This document shows positions 15,338 to 42,700 of a stretch of 64,000 bases of DNA, in pieces; positions within the stretch are counted from its first letter, which is position 1, and every line of letters begins with the position of its first letter. Location of the stretch: assembly GCA_023053545.1 (NCBI GenBank), contig JAKZAN010000004.1:5952001-6016000 (forward strand). The letters are read 5' to 3'. A model generated the notes under the pieces. It was not told the origin of the DNA. It ran no database searches and saw only the letters and a program-made list of their open reading frames with translations. The stretch comes from Lepidurus packardi (lineage: Eukaryota; Arthropoda; Branchiopoda; Notostraca; Triopsidae). Made by a program: the position numbers and the translations under genes.

Positions 15338-17552
15338 ATGGCTGCACGTATTCATGATCCGCCTAGCTCGGCCAGCTCAGAAAGGTGATTTTTAGTTTCC
15401 TGTTAGCAAAAAAAGCTTCTTGCTTGTCTTGACGTTATATTACAAGCGTAATAATATTAAAACGTGGTCCCTGTACTCCATTTGTGTTGAAATTCGAATA
15501 ACGTCTTCGTTTCCAGTGATCCAGAAGAATGGGCTGCTAAACAAGGATTGTCCGAAGATGATGGAGAAGCTTTTGATTCCAAGTTTACCAATCCTGATGC
15601 TCCATTGTCTCCACCTCCAGTTCGACCACCGTCATCTTGTAAATCATTTTCTTTTAGCCCTTTCTCTTTTGGTTGCCTCACATGAATTTTATCTAAGATC
15701 TTTGTGTATAGCTTCCCAGCGTTCTCCACGTGCTCGTCGTCAGAGAACAACGTCTCATAGTCAGTCGTCGATAACTTCAGTGACAAAAGCATCTCAGGAA
15801 CCAATTTTGAGAAGGCAACAGAGAACCATATACACGGCAGGGCGTCCGCCATGGTATAACAGTGCTGGTCAGCATGTGGAGCCTTTTGTTATTGGTATTT
15901 GCGGAGGAAGTGCCTCTGGTAAAACAACAGTGGCCACCAGCATAATCGAAGCACTTGATATTCCATGGGTCACGCTATTGAGTATGGATTCATTTTACAA
16001 AGTAAGTTGCTCACTTAAAATGAATTGCAGTTTAACTCTTTACTTTCTTTGCCAAGGATCTGTCGGAAAAACAGCATGATAAAGCTGCCCAAAATGAGTA
16101 CAATTTCGATCACCCAGACGCATTTGATTTCGAATTACTGGTCAAAACACTGAAACGCCTTAAACAATCTAAAAGCGTAGAAGTGCCTGTATATAACTTC
16201 CTCAGTCACAGCAGGGAGTCACATACCGTAATGATAGCATTTACCACTTGAGCTTTCGTTTTTACTTACCTTATAATATTATACTTACCTTTATCACACT
16301 GTTGTTTTACCCTCGTTTTACATGGCTGTAGAAAACTATGTATGGTGCCAACGTCATTATTTTTGAAGGAATTTTGGCTTTCTACTGTCCGGACGTTTGC
16401 TCGGTAATCATTCACAACGTTACCGTTCTAAAATTTTTCGAGATTAACAGGATGTTTGTCCCTTTTTTGCATAGTTATTGGACCTGAAAGTGTTTGTAGA
16501 CACAGACTCTGATGTCCGTTTGGCTCGCCGTTTGAGAAGGGACATTACCCTACGTGGACGCGATTTGGAAGGCGTGCTCAAGCAATATGCACGCTTTGTC
16601 AAACCCGCGTTTGACTATTACATTGCTCCTTGCATGGCCCATGCTGACATTATCGTTCCTCGGGGTGGAGATAACAAAGTTGCCATTTCCCTTATCGTCC
16701 AGCATGTTCATACGCAACTTCAGCAACGAGGATTTAAACTGCGTGGGGTGCTGGCCAATGCTCATGTCGGTCAACCATTACCTTCCAGCATTCACATACT
16801 ACCGTCCACGCCTCAAATCCGGGGATTGCATACGTTTATTCGCAACAAGGATACGCCAAGGGACGAGTTTATTTTTTACTCCAAACGACTCATTCGATTG
16901 ACTATTGAATTTGCCCTTTCCCTGCTGCCCTTCAAGGTAAAAACCTTGCATAAATATATTCAAACTGCTAAAGTTTGTATGATCCCACAGGATGTAGTGA
17001 TCGAAACACCTCAAGGTGCACCTTATCATGGCAAGCGTCTTTTGACCCAGAATATCTGTGGTGTCTCTGTACTCCGAGCTGGGGAAACTATGGAACAAGC
17101 CTTATCTGAAGTCTGCAAGGACATTCGCATTGGCAAGATTTTGATTCAGACAAATATGGACACTGGAGAACCGGAGCTGTATTATTTGCGCCTTCCAAAA
17201 GATATCAAGGACTATTTGGTCATCTTGATGGACGCCACTGTAGCCACTGGGGCTGCAGCTATGATGGCAATTCGAGTTTTGTTGGATCATGATGTGCCCG
17301 AAGAGAATATTTTGCTAGTCTCCTTGCTTATTGCTGAATCTGGTAGGCAAAACACCACCTTTCTAATATTGAGTTTTGTTCTAACTATATGTCTCTTTAG
17401 GAGTGCATTCTATTGCGTACGCATTCCCAAGAGTACGAATTGTTTCCTCTGCTGTGGACCCGGAAATTAATGAAAAGTTTTACGTCAAACCCGGTATTGG
17501 GAACTTTGGGGACCGTTATTTTGGCACTGAACCACTTGAAGATTCCTCGTAA
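15338..17552 (+). CDS. UCKL1: Uridine-cytidine kinase-like 1
   Basis: Eight exons: 15338-15384, 15517-15638, 15712-16001, 16057-16227, 16332-16403, 16475-16936, 16991-17342, 17401-17552; 555 residues against 548 in human UCKL1. A Ser/Arg-rich N-terminus leads to [12 protein letters not shown], the kinase P-loop GGSASGKTT (about 121-129), [20 protein letters not shown]-type motif, FVDTDSD and RRLRRDI. The C-terminal half is a uracil phosphoribosyltransferase-like domain with [29 protein letters not shown] and [24 protein letters not shown], ending [10 protein letters not shown]. The family phosphorylates uridine and cytidine in pyrimidine salvage; the UPRT domain of animal members is thought inactive. 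The gene is complete. Confidence 0.97.
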
Positions 17553-17942: not shown

Positions 17943-19740
17943 TCACACGTAGTAATTTACAATTGCTTCAAAGTGCTCTTGTTGTCCAGACTTTAGAGTG
18001 GGCTCGCCGTGCTCTTCGATGTACTTTTCGCAATCCTCCAAGCTGCTGGCGCCTTTTGCGATCTTTTCACCAATTCCGGACTCGAACGTCAAGTATCGGT
18101 CCTAGATTCGTAAGTCAAAAGGGAAGCTCGCTATATAAATCGACGCAAAACTTCACAAAAAGAATGAAAAATACTTTTATTTTCTTAGATAGGACGCCAT
18201 CGTTTATCATCCGAACAGCAATTTTCAATCCACGAGCGAACGTATCCATGGCTGCGATATGAGCTATAAACAAGTCTTGGTCTTCGGTAGACTCGCGCCT
18301 CACTTTGGCATCAAAGTTCAAGCCACCGGGCTGCAAGCCTCCCTGTCAACATAATAATAGTTGGATTTTTCTAGGGTTTCGAAGATTTCAAGTCAAATCA
18401 CTTGTTCCAGAACGATTTTCATGACAGCTGTGCATGCTTTGACGTCCATGGGAAATTGGTCCGTGTCCCAGCCTAAGTCGGGAGAGCCCGTATTTGCATC
18501 CACCGATCCAAGCATTCCAAACCTAAGACGGGGCAGAAATAGGCATAAGAAAGAGCAAATAGAGCGGCAAAATAGGAACTCTTTTACGTTGAAGCCATGG
18601 CGATGTCGTGTTCATAAGGATGACCTGCCAGCGTGGTATGATTCGGTTCGATGTTCAGTTTAAATTCATTTTCAAGACCGTATGTACGGAGAAAGCCTAT
18701 TACTGTCATCGCATCATAGTCGTATTGGTGGCGCGAAGGCTCCTTAGGTTTGGGCTCGATGAGCAATTGACCTTGAAATCCGATCTTTTTTTTGTAAGCT
18801 ACAGCCATTTTAAAGAAATTAGCCAAGTTATCCAACTCTTGCTTCAGATTGGTATTGAGCAGCGACTGGTAACCTTCCCGGCCACCCCAGAACACAAAGT
18901 TTTCGGCGCCGAGCTTCTTAGCAACTTGCAAACCTTTCTTCACTTGCGCACCTGCGTACGCTACGACATGAGCGTCTGGATTCGTGGCAGCCCCAGAAGC
19001 ATACCTGTAAAGGAATCGTAAATTTCTATTGTAATTCGCTTTTTATTACGGTATTTTACCGGGAATGTGTGAATAAGTTACAAGTAGCCCAAAGCAACTT
19101 GACCCCGGTCTCATTTTGCAGTTCCAATGCAAGATCGCTTATTTCGTCCAACTGGCGATTTGTCGCTTTTAATGTCGATTCTTCCGGAGAGATATCGCGA
19201 TCATGGAAAGTCCAGTATTTAACCCCTATTTTAAAACGTTTTTATTTAAATAACCCTTACTTTTGGTTCAGGAAGTTTTGCGATTTAAATACCTAGTTTT
19301 GAAAACAGCTCGAACCCTGCTCTCAAGCGGCGTTTATGATTTTCCAGCGAATTTGAGCCATCATCCCAATGCCTGTTGAGCGTCGCTTGACCAAAGGGAT
19401 CCGCTCCTGTAATAAAAGTTAAATTTTGGCAATTCGGCGTGAAGCGAGGGGGGTAACCTTATTGCCTACCAGTTCCTCTAAATGTATGCCAGAAACATAC
19501 GGAAAAGCGAAGCCACTCCTCCATAGTTTTTCCGTGAACGATCTCCTTCGCATTATAATGTTTGAAGGCCAGAGTGTCTTCAGGACCGCTTTCAGGTTTG
19601 TACGGAATCTTGGGTATGTCTAATTTACCAATTTGAGCCTTGAAACTTCTACGTGCATGGATTTATGAGTAATTACTTGGAAAGAAGGCGGCGTCGGGTG
19701 CACTGTCTCGCTTTGGTTTCTTATTCGAAGCGGGCAACAT
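17943..19740 (-). CDS. xylA: Xylose isomerase
   Basis: Eight phase-consistent exons in coding order: 19740-19677, 19619-19470, 19406-19293, 19225-19060, 19004-18588, 18522-18402, 18342-18175, 18101-17943; 452 residues against about 437 for fungal and plant enzymes. It converts D-xylose to D-xylulose (and can act on glucose) with two divalent metals. Seen: catalytic His in TFHDRD; Trp of [22 protein letters not shown]; metal Glu of [10 protein letters not shown]; Glu and His of [12 protein letters not shown]; Asp of LGSVDANTG; two Asp of GWDTDQFP; Asp of LNFDAK. All ligands are present, so it should be active. The small introns and absence of a signal peptide show a genuine nuclear, probably cytosolic, animal gene. 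Few animals have this enzyme. Confidence 0.95.
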
Positions 19741-20644: not shown

Positions 20645-23600
20645 CAGGGCCGCCCAGAGGTTAGACGGGGCCCGGGGCGAACCTAAAATGGAGGCCCCCC
20701 TTTTTTTTTTTTTTTTCTTTTTAAATGCCGTCGTAGGCTGCGCCTATTGACCGCTTCTTTTATTGAGGCCCCTTTCGTGCACATAAGAAACTGTAAAAAA
20801 AAGTATTTAAAAAATTTAAAACCTTATGTAATCTTGATTAAATCAGACTTGTATATAGACAAAACAAAAGAAAAATTCAAAATACAGACTTTCTTGCTCT
20901 TCGCATTGCAAACTCGTCAATTAAATTATCGTAATTAAGATTCTGAGCCAGTTTGTGTTCAATAGATAAAATCAGTAAATGATTTAGTCGTTCCTGGCCC
21001 ATAGTAGAGCGCAAGTGGTTTTTTACGAGGGACATCTTGCTGAAAGATCGCTCAGCAGACGCAACTGACACAGGCAAACAAAGAAACATACGCAACGATA
21101 TACAAATCTGAGGAAACAAGGTCTCTAAGGAATGTTCATATATTTTGTTTAGCAGCTTCAAGGGAGAGCAAAGCTTTGACTGGAGAAAATTTTCACGAGT
21201 CTTGACAAAAAGTCGCATTTCTTCGACTAGATCTTCTTCATTTAAATCACGAGAATAAGCTTGAGCGAGACTTTTGGTTTTCCGATGTATTAAATCCATA
21301 TTTGTGACTTCTTGGTCCCAAAGAAAAGAGAAGAGATCGCAAATGTTATTCGCTGCTTGAAAACGCTCTTTAATTTCCATTGATATTCTGTCTAAAGTGG
21401 CCAAAAAGACTTCTACTTTAAACTTGTCCTCCGCTGTTTCATGCAAGTGCTCCGTATTTTTCGGTTCACCATAAAAAGTCTTCCTTTTATGGAGTGCTTT
21501 GGTTTTTAGCTGGCTTTCCAAGCCCAACTGAGTAGCGACTAGTTTAGCTTCACTTACTAGTTGGTCCCAGTTCGTTCTCAATGTTTCGATGTCTTGAAGA
21601 AGGTTTCTGCATTCTCTAACTTCTCCTTCAATGCTAAGACTCGCTTTTTGTAGCAGCTTGTTCCTGTCATCGATGGCCTGCAGAGTCTTGTACCAAAATG
21701 TACTCAAAAGGACGAAGTGAAAAGATGACATCCAATTATCAAGCGTATCTGCATCCGCGTGCGCTTCAGGCGGCAAATCCAGTTCTTGAAGAAGCTCAAG
21801 AGATTTGAGGATTCCACGATAGTCCTTCAGCAAGGGCTTCACAGCCTCAATTCTGGCGCTCCAACGAGTATCTGAGAGGCTGTGCAGAGATACACTTGCG
21901 TTTTCTCGCAAAACTTTCCAGCGAGCTGGACTGCAGCTGAACAAGTTGTACAATTTTTGGATGTTGCCAAAGTAACTCTTAATTGCAAGGCATGCCTGGG
22001 CAGCATTCACACCACACAAATTCAAACTGTGGGCTCCACAAGGGGAATAAAGAGCGCACGAGTTCACTTTTAAAATTACTGCCTGTACACCCTTGTAGCA
22101 GCCCGACATGTTAGAAGCGTTATCGTATGCTTGGCCTCTGCAAAGCATGATTTCCAAATTGTTTTCCTTCAGAACTTCGAAAATCAGACCTGAAATGTCT
22201 TTCCCCTTCTTTTTTTCAAAATCTGCAAGTTTCAAAAATCTTTCGAAGACTTCCCAATTACCATCTGAACTCTGGTTGACAAAGCGAAAGAGGAATGTAA
22301 CTTGTTCTGTGTGGGATGTATCTGGGGTGCTATCAACAATAATGCTATAGTACTGAGCTTTAATAATTTCATCTACGACAGCCTTTCGAACAGAGTTACC
22401 ACAAAGCTCGAGAAACTCATTCTGAGTTCTCCAGGAGAGATAGTGGGCCTGCATTCTTTCACCTCGCTGCTGGTATTTCACTACCTCATCCAGATGATAC
22501 ATCAGAGTCTGGTTATGCCTGCCAATGAGTTCTAAGACCCCGATAAAATTCCCGTTACCGTGCTCCCCGACATGAGAAGAAGAACCGCGAAAGGCAAGAT
22601 TCCTTCCCGCCAAAAACAAAGCCCCATCGAGACAGCATCTTAGAATTTCTCTCCATTTCTCGGATTCTTTGTTTACTTGCTTCACAACCTCCTTATCAAT
22701 TCCTGTTGCCTTTTTTAAAGAAGTTAAACAGTCCTTCCATGCAAGATAAGCTTCAACGTGTGCAGCGGACTTTTCGTGATTCCTCAATTTTTCGTGAAGC
22801 TTATGCCAGTTCCCTCTAACGCCAACTCCAAATTTGCACAGTTTTGAAGTGGATTCGGATTGCCGGTCACTTTGGAAAAGACAGCAAGAAAAACAAAATA
22901 GCCCTCCTACGCTGTCACTCCAAACTAACCAGTCTCGAGGTACTTTTACGCTGTTAGGCTGCTCCTTGTACAGTACAATCACTGGGAAAGGCCGTCCACA
23001 AGAATCCCTCGGAAAAGCAGTGGGCATTGACGGAACCCCTTGTAGAACAATGAGGTCACGGTTCTTGACGATTTCTTCACGGGTTGTCCATGCGCCAGGA
23101 TCACGTGCAGCTTCAGCTAGATGTTCAATATCATCGTCGTTCTCGACGCGTAATCCTGGTAAGTTGTCTTCCGGTTGCAAAGGTGAACTAGTAGTTTCTT
23201 CTACTGCTTCGCTTCCCTCATGTTGAGCGGGTAATTCTGCTTCACATATTTCGTAGGGGAGGATCTTGGCAACAAAGAGCTCTTCGGAATCTGTTCTTGG
23301 CTGAGGTAGCGCCTCATCTGATAGCAAAGTTAATTGAATAGGTACCATACATTTCGCACTAGGAATTGACAAATTTACCTTCATTCACTTGTTGAGCATT
23401 TTCGAACGAAATTTCTACTGTAGTAAGTGAATGTTCAACGATTTCGTTGCGACTGGAACTGGGCTGCGAAATCCAACCCAAGTCGATCAAAGTTATTTTA
23501 CCAGGCTGGTCTGCAGAATCCCTATCCCGTTTAAGTTTTCTTTTTTGAGCACCAGACGGGTGATTTCTCTTCATTCTAATTAATTCTTAATAGTCAAGTG

Positions 23601-39790: not shown

Positions 39791-42700
39791 GGCGGAAATG
39801 TTGTGTGTATTGACGAACGTAAACGTAAGCAAGCACACAACCAACGGAGTAGTTGATTGAGTGACGGGAATCACCAGGCAATAGCGCAAAGTCGGGATTC
39901 AAAGCTGTCCAGGCAGTCGGTAGCAGTTAACAAGAGAAATGTCAGGCGGATGGGCACGGACCGGGCCAAGGTGGTTCCCGATTTAATTCAATTCGCCAAT
40001 TTGGTTTGGCAAAGCGGAAGCCTATATGGCTTCTGCTTTTATGCCCCGAGCTGCAACCCTGTTAAGAAAAGAATATACAAAAATAAATATACAATTCCTA
40101 CGGGTTGAAGGTGCTTATCAATAATCAATAAGAAATCCGCCAGCCCGTTCAAGATACGACCCATATGAAGGCCAAGCACAGGGCCAAGGCCTTGTTGGAA
40201 GCCTTATTCCAGTTTCTGGATGCTTACGTGATGTTACGTTCCTAGTACCCGACGACCGGTTCGCTCTCTTATATTCCCATCTTTCCTTTCCCTTGTCCTG
40301 GAGTCGAACTACTCCCCCTACTCTAAAGCACCATGTAAGGACTGTCTGTCTGTCTTAAGTCTGGCAATCTTGAGACACAAATGTTGCTTAGGCGGGCTAA
40401 AAGTTAGCTTAGCTCCAGGTCATGGAGGTCAAGATAGCAAACTACAAGCGTATCTTGCAGGTCATCGTACGATTGGCTCGCTTTCGCATAAGCAAAAGCC
40501 CCCGGTGTCTGGAATAAGTGACTACAGCCCAAATTTTGCCTGTGCCACCTTTGGGCATTCCATTATATGATCCCAAAACCCCGTTAGCATGGTGTCAAAA
40601 TCACGTTGTGGCTGAATGACCGGACAACTAGTTCCCAACGATTCACGCAGCCTTGCGTAACGTTTTACACAGGCAACAGAGTGCGGTATAGGCGCGATAC
40701 AGCCCAGACCAGATCAATAACAATATGAGGAGTATATCCCTGTATCTTATGCCGGCAATCGCCATGCTGTTTTGATCGGCTTGTGTCCTTGGCTCCTACT
40801 ATCCGGTCACAATTGCCGCAAAGCGCAGCTGTGAATGAATCTCAAGTCCAAAAAAAATTTACTGCTAGCCAGCTGACTCAAATTTGCAACCAACTTCTGC
40901 TTCCGAAACCCCCATCTCTACAATTTAGCGCGAGCCATAACTTCTACGGAGATTGTAATGAGGTCAGTCCCCGAATTTCTGGCCTAGATACGCTAAGATG
41001 AAAGACAAAATCGCATATCTCCCGAGTTATCGCTACTTACGCAACCAAATTTGCTATATTTGAAGTTGATAAGAAGCGCTCGAAATTTTTTTTTTTTATA
41101 AACGAATATGCTATTTGAACTGGTTTGGAATGCTAACAACTTTTTTGAACTGCAAAACTGGGAGAAATAACGTCTCGAATCCAGAGTCCGAAAGTAGCTT
41201 ACAATGCCTGTACCACTCCTAAATAGAATTCGCGCATGGCAGAGCTGCGATACTGGGTATCAGCCAGCTATCGATTACAGACATTTTTTTTTTATTAATT
41301 CGATACTTAGAAAGATAACAGAACCCTGGTCTCGCTCTACGCTAACCGGTACGATCCGGATTCGCCTAACATGACAGGCATGGTAACCGAGAGGATCCCC
41401 TCCCTGAACATGAGCAAGAAACATGGCGACCTGGCAGGTTTTACGAATTTAATCAAAAATAAAAATTATTGAAGTCGATCCCAGGAATTCTTGTCAATCA
41501 GTAAAAAGATGACGTCAAAACTTACCCTAGTAGGTGCGCACCCCGGCTTAATCTTCTTCCGCGGAATTCTCAAAATTTTCTACACCAAAAACCACGTACA
41601 TACGTCAACGGCACGGGGGAGGGGGAAGGGCGAAAGAGTGCTGTTACACTAGCAGCGGAGCTGAGCACACCATTCGCTGCGGAACGGAGAAATGTGGATG
41701 TCGAAAAAGCATGCTTTCGTTTTATAGTCACGAAAGCCTAGACTCGTAAGTGGGAGGAGCTAAACTTCCCGCCGGCGGAGCAGTAAGCTACAAGCTCCGC
41801 CTACTCCTAAAATACTTTCCCGTCTTTCCGGACTAGAGAAACCCAAACGCTGAAATAATCTGGAAATGGCAGATAATATCCAATTTCGTTGGGGAATTTT
41901 GTTAATTAGAAGTTTAAAATATGAGCGAACTTCCTCGGCTCGAATTCCTATATTGTAACCCATATCTAACGAATTACGTCCTATTTATTCAGTTTCAAGT
42001 CCATTATCGTTGACAGAAAAACGCCTGTAATATGCCCCCATGATTTAGACGAAGCAGGAAAAAAGGTCCACAAATGATTTACAATCATTCTTCATCCGAA
42101 AAGGAGACACGTCACAAATGAAAGTGTTAACATAATTGATTTATAATAATTATTGTCATTTATTGTTTTTCATCAAGAGAAATTAAAGCAACTCATTTTC
42201 GTCTGGTGTTAATCAAACTTGAAGCTTACATATGAATCTCATTAGCATAGATAATTGCAAACTTAAGATGACATAGCATTTGTTACTGGAGCCGTTACGA
42301 AGCGATGGTGCAACAACACCCATGACCCATAACAATGCTTTTGCGCAAGACTTGACTGCAAATCACACGAAACGGAAATCACGTGCATCCTCGGAAAGCG
42401 GACGCCTCTAAGCGTGTAAAAAATGGCGCTGGTGATACTTGTTATATGATAATAGGGATGCACAAGCTGTCCACTGTTTCTCCGCCTTAACTGTTTTGTT
42501 TTTCAGTCAAAAATTAGCTGGTTTAAACCAGACTTTTCGTAAAGCCTGTCGCAACCCAAACGCCAGAAAAACAAGAACAATAGCCATTGTTGCGAGCGCG
42601 ATACATTCGTATCGTACTCCTGCCCCCCCCCCCCCCCCCCCCCCCCCTCGAGAAGTGGCCTGCCCACATGACCGATTTCTAAACTGTGTGCTTAGGGTCC

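What the first reader, a model, noticed from the sequence alone, without database searches (positions are those of the whole stretch)
17943..19740. Xylose isomerase as a genuine nuclear gene in an arthropod
Seen: eight exons with short GT-AG introns, full length, and the metal-ligand and catalytic residues in place, flanked by ordinary animal genes. Known: the enzyme is typical of bacteria, plants and some fungi and is patchy in animals. Inference: an active sugar isomerase, kept from an old ancestor or gained long ago, perhaps for plant or algal pentoses.
Basis: partly seen in the sequence, partly recalled or inferred. Interest (0 to 1): 0.7.

Follow-up and report, generated by a model that had tools for sequence, protein, structure and literature searches.

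The report
Ordinary animal xylose isomerase gene
An animal that looks like an arthropod carries its own intact, intron-containing gene for an enzyme that turns the sugar xylose into xylulose; genes of the same name are already reported from molluscs and a crab, so it is real but not surprising.

Summary
On the minus strand, 19740-17943, eight exons with seven GT-AG introns of 55-73 nt give one open 452-residue protein. It is a full-length class II xylose isomerase: TIGR02630, 657 bits, cut-off 533, with all ten catalytic and metal positions checked intact. It lies on a 12.87-Mb contig among animal-type genes, and all six TIGR02630 matches in the 108.6-Mb assembly belong to it. The best prokaryote relative is 57% identical, so recent transfer or contamination is very unlikely. 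Two octopus ink peptides assigned to oyster "xylose isomerase-like" are identical here (a third is not) and absent from 80 of 80 bacterial relatives; one carries a Tyr-to-Phe change at a column uniform in the other rows. Scallop, apple snail and crab products of that name are in print. The genome also has a xylulokinase gene, so xylose entry into the pentose phosphate pathway is the likely function. Expression and activity are untested. Old inheritance and ancient transfer are not separated: seven of eight bacterial placements tried are not rejected.

The parts
19677..19740 (-). exon 1 of the xylose isomerase gene, start codon at 19740 (residues 1-22)
19470..19619 (-). exon 2 (residues 22-72)
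19293..19406 (-). exon 3 (residues 72-110)
19060..19225 (-). exon 4 (residues 110-165; His117, Asp120)
18588..19004 (-). exon 5 (residues 165-304; Trp204, Glu248, Lys250, Glu284, His287)
   Evidence: this exon alone gives one match in the whole genome
18402..18522 (-). exon 6 (residues 304-344; metal ligands Asp312, Asp323, Asp325)
18175..18342 (-). exon 7 (residues 345-400; metal ligand Asp355)
17943..18101 (-). exon 8 with stop codon (residues 401-452)
16475..17552 (+). 3' part of a uridine kinase/uracil phosphoribosyltransferase-like gene (UCKL type, name recalled), convergent neighbour, ends 390 nt from the XI stop (flank only)
   Evidence: Pfam PRK and UPRTase; ORFs 16475-17470 and 17385-17552
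20880..23384 (-). hAT-type transposase ORF, 835 aa, next feature on the 5' side (flank only)
   Evidence: Pfam DUF4371 and Dimer_Tnp_hAT

Best explanation
This is the animal's own single-copy gene for a class II D-xylose isomerase (EC 5.3.1.5), inherited from an invertebrate ancestor that also gave rise to the mollusc and crab copies. Shown: gene structure, single copy in the assembly, family membership, intact active site, animal-type surroundings, a xylulokinase gene elsewhere in the genome. Inferred: common descent with the mollusc and crab proteins; that the protein forms the usual metal-dependent TIM-barrel tetramer in the cytosol, opens the ring of D-xylose with the His117/Asp120 pair, and moves a hydride between C2 and C1 at the two-metal site (Glu248, Glu284, His287, Asp312, Asp323, Asp325, Asp355) to give D-xylulose, which xylulokinase turns into xylulose 5-phosphate for the pentose phosphate pathway. 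Residue roles and mechanism are recalled from the bacterial enzymes. It may also interconvert glucose and fructose weakly, as bacterial relatives do (recalled).
For: Gene model with seven GT-AG introns. NCBIfam equivalog TIGR02630 above cut-off. Matches over 433-442 query residues to solved xylose isomerases 1a0d, 1a0e, 1a0c, 6int and 4xkm. Ten of ten catalytic/metal positions checked (numbered by the E. coli-type row L083) are identical in the query and in 84 of 84 other rows (80 bacterial, 4 PDB); of 98 columns conserved at 97% or more, the query differs at 5. Six of six TIGR02630 matches in 108,557,554 bases and 344 contigs are this gene's exons, on C3 of 12,866,234 bases. Animal-type neighbours: Ig, amine oxidase, uridine kinase/UPRT, Ge-1, decarboxylase, CSE1, fasciclin. 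Two of three octopus/oyster peptides identical, each in 0 of 80 bacterial proteins, and the Tyr201Phe change. 'Xylose isomerase-like' in scallop (51.1 kDa in print, 50.7 kDa computed here), apple snail and a crab transcript. Xylulokinase gene at G000:C4 near 9604773: three of three exon pieces tested match only the solved xylulose kinase 4bc2 (E 9e-33, 2.5e-23, 8e-22).
Against: No transcript, protein or activity was seen for this gene. No full animal XI sequence was available for a tree; the animal link rests on two short peptides and on product names, and the third octopus peptide (FCCLYIFNK) is not in this protein. The scallop authors thought their xylose isomerase hit might come from a neighbouring band. 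The row is a long branch (0.86-1.24), so its deep place is unsure; a tree holding it next to Opitutaceae was 0.45 log units better than the free tree. The assembly holds bacterial-looking contigs elsewhere.
Confidence: 0.85

Rival explanations
1. A lineage-specific, fairly recent transfer from a bacterium or anaerobic fungus into this arthropod, with introns gained later.
For: The family is mainly bacterial. A PDB row that I recall as the Piromyces enzyme (5nh4) groups with Bacteroides-type 4xkm, a case of transfer into a eukaryote. Placements next to Bacteroidota (p-AU 0.50) or Opitutaceae (p-AU 0.55) are not rejected.
Against: A clade with 4xkm and 5nh4 alone is rejected (p-AU 0.0012). Two peptides are shared with a mollusc hit and with 0 of 80 bacteria. 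Seven introns.
Confidence: 0.05
2. Bacterial or other contamination in the assembly.
For: The assembly holds bacterial-looking contigs (C52, C214, C43, C197).
Against: It sits inside C3 (12.87 Mb), with GT-AG introns and animal-type genes on both sides.
Confidence: 0.01
3. A decayed or moonlighting relic: the protein is made but no longer isomerises xylose.
For: No expression or assay data. Five departures from near-invariant columns, one of them (Ala288Thr) next to the metal ligand His287.
Against: Ten of ten catalytic and metal positions kept, no stop or frameshift, full length. Products of this name are seen in proteomes or transcripts of molluscs and a crab.
Confidence: 0.09

Closest known systems
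Class II xylose isomerase, NCBIfam TIGR02630 (xylose_isom_A); solved relatives 1a0d, 1a0e, 1a0c
   Same: Full-length match above the cut-off; 54 and 52% identity to 1a0d and 1a0e; ten of ten checked active-site positions identical
   Different: Split by seven introns; an N-terminal extension of about 17 residues; five unusual residues at conserved columns
Mollusc and crustacean 'xylose isomerase-like' proteins (oyster, scallop XP_021350524.1, apple snail XP_025110989.1, Scylla transcript)
   Same: Same product name; similar size for scallop (51.1 kDa); two identical peptides, one with the Phe of ENFVFWGG
Bacteroides- and Piromyces-type xylose isomerases (PDB 4xkm, 5nh4; organism names recalled)
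   Same: Same family and catalytic set
   Different: 47 and 46% identity; a clade of the query with these two alone is rejected
   Same: Groups with the query, support 95/88 in the 48-row tree and 87 in the 86-row quick tree
   Different: Recalled, unverified sequence; both are long branches, so attraction is possible

Membership tests
Class II xylose isomerase (TIGR02630) | full-length match above curated cut-off | tested here: met
   657 bits against 533.25, profile 1-435 of 435
Class II xylose isomerase (TIGR02630) | catalytic His/Asp pair, Lys, and the metal ligands | tested here: met
   His117, Asp120, Glu248, Lys250, Glu284, His287, Asp312, Asp323, Asp325, Asp355; identical in 84 of 84 other rows; roles recalled
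Class II xylose isomerase (TIGR02630) | TIM-barrel fold | not tested
Class II xylose isomerase (TIGR02630) | metal-dependent xylose to xylulose activity, tetramer | not testable with these tools
   needs recombinant protein
Animal xylose isomerase-like proteins | nuclear gene with spliceosomal introns among animal genes | tested here: met
   splicing inferred from sequence, no transcripts
Animal xylose isomerase-like proteins | sequence marks shared with other animals and not with bacteria | tested here: met
   two of the three octopus/oyster peptides in the passages seen are identical; 0 of 80 bacterial proteins hold either; the third peptide is absent from the query
Animal xylose isomerase-like proteins | clade with full-length animal sequences | not testable with these tools
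   no animal sequence collection on hand
Recent transfer from anaerobic fungi/Bacteroides | nests with the Piromyces/Bacteroides rows | tested here: inconclusive
   p-AU 0.0012 for the query with 4xkm and 5nh4 alone, but p-AU 0.50 when a Saprospiraceae row is added to the set

The most novel reading that the evidence does not exclude
Xylose isomerase is an ancestral animal (perhaps ancestral eukaryote) enzyme. It gives many aquatic invertebrates a one-step, cofactor-free route from xylose to xylulose, and it was lost repeatedly in other animals (vertebrates, insects, nematodes, by recall); this gene is a representative from a crustacean-like lineage. The pairing with a recalled plant sequence hints at a single eukaryotic origin.
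Probability: 0.4. Interest if true: 0.4.

Novelty: new member of a known kind. Interest (0 to 1): 0.2.

Why it matters
It adds a clean, chromosome-anchored example, probably from an arthropod, to the little-studied animal xylose isomerases, and shows that the same genome encodes a xylulokinase. The common view (recalled) that animals lack xylose isomerase would not hold for this lineage. It is a data point for tracing gain and loss of the gene across animals; by itself it changes no concept.

Tried and rejected
Recent transfer and contamination were considered and judged very unlikely (see rivals). Viral collections: two scans found no xylose isomerase (no pattern match; 64 stretches matched, 0 relatives).

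Placement among bacteria (47 rows: the query, 4 PDB rows and 42 of the 80 bacterial loci, no plant row). With the query held next to a group the AU p-values were 0.50 (Bacteroidota with 4xkm and 5nh4), 0.075 (Bacillota), 0.094 (main Planctomycetota/Verrucomicrobiota clade) and 0.31 (Phycisphaerae/Armatimonadota clade); then 0.55 (Opitutaceae, 0.45 log units better than the free tree), 0.23 (Lentisphaerota), 0.44 (one gammaproteobacterium) and 0.0012 (4xkm and 5nh4 alone). The groups were named after I had seen trees. The bacterial origin point is unresolved.

Xylan-digesting enzymes: GH10, 0 matches; GH43, 1 match on contig C53 of 222,798 bases, open over 604 residues and so perhaps bacterial (not followed up). 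The search reads exon by exon and can miss split genes.

Xylulokinase: the family searches FGGY_N (8 matches) and TIGR01312 (14 matches) did not list the C4:9604773 locus. They gave glycerol-kinase-like hits and a xylulokinase-like hit at C4:11026260 with weak similarity to bacterial xylulokinases. The locus came from a motif search with a motif from memory (1 match, 0 for the reversed control) and was then confirmed by three of three exon pieces matching PDB 4bc2.

Papers: ten searches; lists were capped in two (20 of 24 shown; 12 of 815). In what was listed no paper is about animal xylose isomerase as such. Seen as passages only: PMC6798089, PMC9312322, PMC10142993, PMC7700177, PMC12357810, PMC8533556, PMC4772301, PMC11492255, PMC7910561; none read whole. 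The isopod paper PMC6798089 names a xylose isomerase in proteomics, but its two printed peptides are not in this protein and look like phosphoglucomutase (my recall), so I do not count it.

Full report
Observation. The minus strand from 19740 to 17943 holds eight exons whose joins follow seven GT...AG introns of 55-73 nt. The spliced frame is open for 452 residues and ends at a stop at 17943. An in-frame TAG is separated from the ATG by four codons (sequence printed). No transcript was available, so splicing is inferred from the sequence and from the family alignment, in which no gap falls at an exon join.

Identity. NCBIfam TIGR02630 (xylose isomerase) matches over all 435 profile positions with 657 bits; the cut-off is 533.25. 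The other xylose isomerase model, TIGR02631, gives 117 bits, far below its cut-off of 447. The best solved relatives are 1a0d, 1a0e and 1a0c; 1a0d and 1a0e share 54 and 52% of residues with the query. Positions equivalent to E. coli His101, Asp104, Glu232, Lys234, Glu268, His271, Asp296, Asp307, Asp309 and Asp339 (roles recalled) are identical in the query and in 84 of 84 other rows (80 bacterial loci and 4 PDB rows). The query departs from the consensus at 5 of 98 columns that are conserved at 97% or more. Computed mass is 50.7 kDa.

Surroundings. The window is G000:C3:5952001-6016000 in an assembly of 108,557,554 bases and 344 contigs; C3 is 12,866,234 bases. Of 20 ORFs scanned around the gene, 13 match a Pfam family: an Ig-domain protein, an amine oxidase, a uridine kinase/UPRT protein (convergent, ending 390 nt away), a hAT transposase, Ge-1, a pyridoxal-dependent decarboxylase, CSE1 and a fasciclin protein. 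Six of six matches to TIGR02630 in the genome are exons of this one locus.

Organism. COX1-like stretches with stops under the standard code lie on C1, C2, C4, C5, C6, C21 and C38. One of them (L005) reads as COX1 under the invertebrate mitochondrial code, with two stops, the second in a scrambled end, which fits a nuclear copy; that it looks like an arthropod's is my recall. The assembly size and the contigs of 10.7-13.5 Mb (C2-C6) fit my memory of the tadpole shrimp Lepidurus packardi. No call confirms this, and a paper search for it found nothing.

Origin. In a careful 48-row tree the same pair has support 95/88. Without the plant row, AU tests left seven placements next to bacterial groups open (p 0.075-0.55) and rejected one, with the Bacteroides- and Piromyces-type PDB rows alone (p 0.0012). 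A tree with the query next to Opitutaceae was 0.45 log units better than the free tree. So a recent donor is very unlikely, and the deep origin, old inheritance or ancient transfer, is open.

Link to other animals. An octopus ink proteome paper (PMC10142993, passages seen) lists three peptides assigned to oyster 'xylose isomerase-like'. Two of them, [10 protein letters not shown] and [12 protein letters not shown], are identical in this protein; the third, FCCLYIFNK, is not in it. Neither of the two occurs in any of 80 bacterial proteins. The second holds Phe at residue 201, where the other rows have Tyr (fraction 1.0). 'Xylose isomerase-like' is also named in scallop (PMC12357810, passages seen: XP_021350524.1, 51.1 kDa; the authors suspected carry-over from a neighbouring band), apple snail (PMC8533556, passage seen: XP_025110989.1) and a Scylla crab transcript (PMC9312322, passage seen). 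Animal xylose isomerases are therefore already named and detected, although none of the papers listed in my ten searches is about them as such (two lists were capped).

Function. A motif search found one locus, G000:C4:9604773. Its ORFs read YYLGFDFSTQQ, FTGDNPASLAG and EGDIAVSLGTSDT, and three of three exon pieces tested match only the solved xylulose kinase 4bc2, with E 9e-33, 2.5e-23 and 8e-22. The family searches with FGGY_N and TIGR01312 had not listed it. Xylose isomerase plus xylulokinase would feed D-xylose into the pentose phosphate pathway without redox cofactors. Whether the xylose comes from algae and detritus, from gut microbes or from the animal's own proteoglycan linkers is not known. 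GH10 gave no match and GH43 one match, on contig C53 of 222,798 bases, so a dedicated xylan-digesting set was not seen on the large contigs for these two families.

Verdict. A real, intact, ordinary animal gene; correct observation, modest novelty.

Noticed in passing
window 20880-23384, minus strand: An uninterrupted 835-residue hAT-type transposase frame (DUF4371, hAT dimerisation domain), the next feature seen on the 5' side of the gene; possibly a young or domesticated element.
   Followed up: no
G000 contigs C1, C2, C4, C5, C6, C21, C38 (loci L005-L009): Many COX1 stretches with TGA/TAA/TAG stops, several on chromosome-sized contigs (41 matches listed in all, three of them uninterrupted bacterial-type ones on other contigs): probably a heavy load of nuclear mitochondrial copies.
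   Followed up: partly
G000 contigs C52, C43, C214, C197, C53: Uninterrupted bacterial-type genes (COX1 family, glycerol kinase, GH43): probably bacterial contigs in the assembly.
   Followed up: partly
window 42623-42647: A run of 25 C.
   Followed up: no
G000:C4:11026260-11026970 (L098): An FGGY kinase frame with weak similarity to bacterial xylulokinases; by recall perhaps a sedoheptulokinase.
   Followed up: partly
PMC6798089 (isopod proteomics, passages seen): The two peptides printed for xylose isomerase look like phosphoglucomutase peptides (by recall) and are not in this protein; the labels may be shifted.
   Followed up: partly
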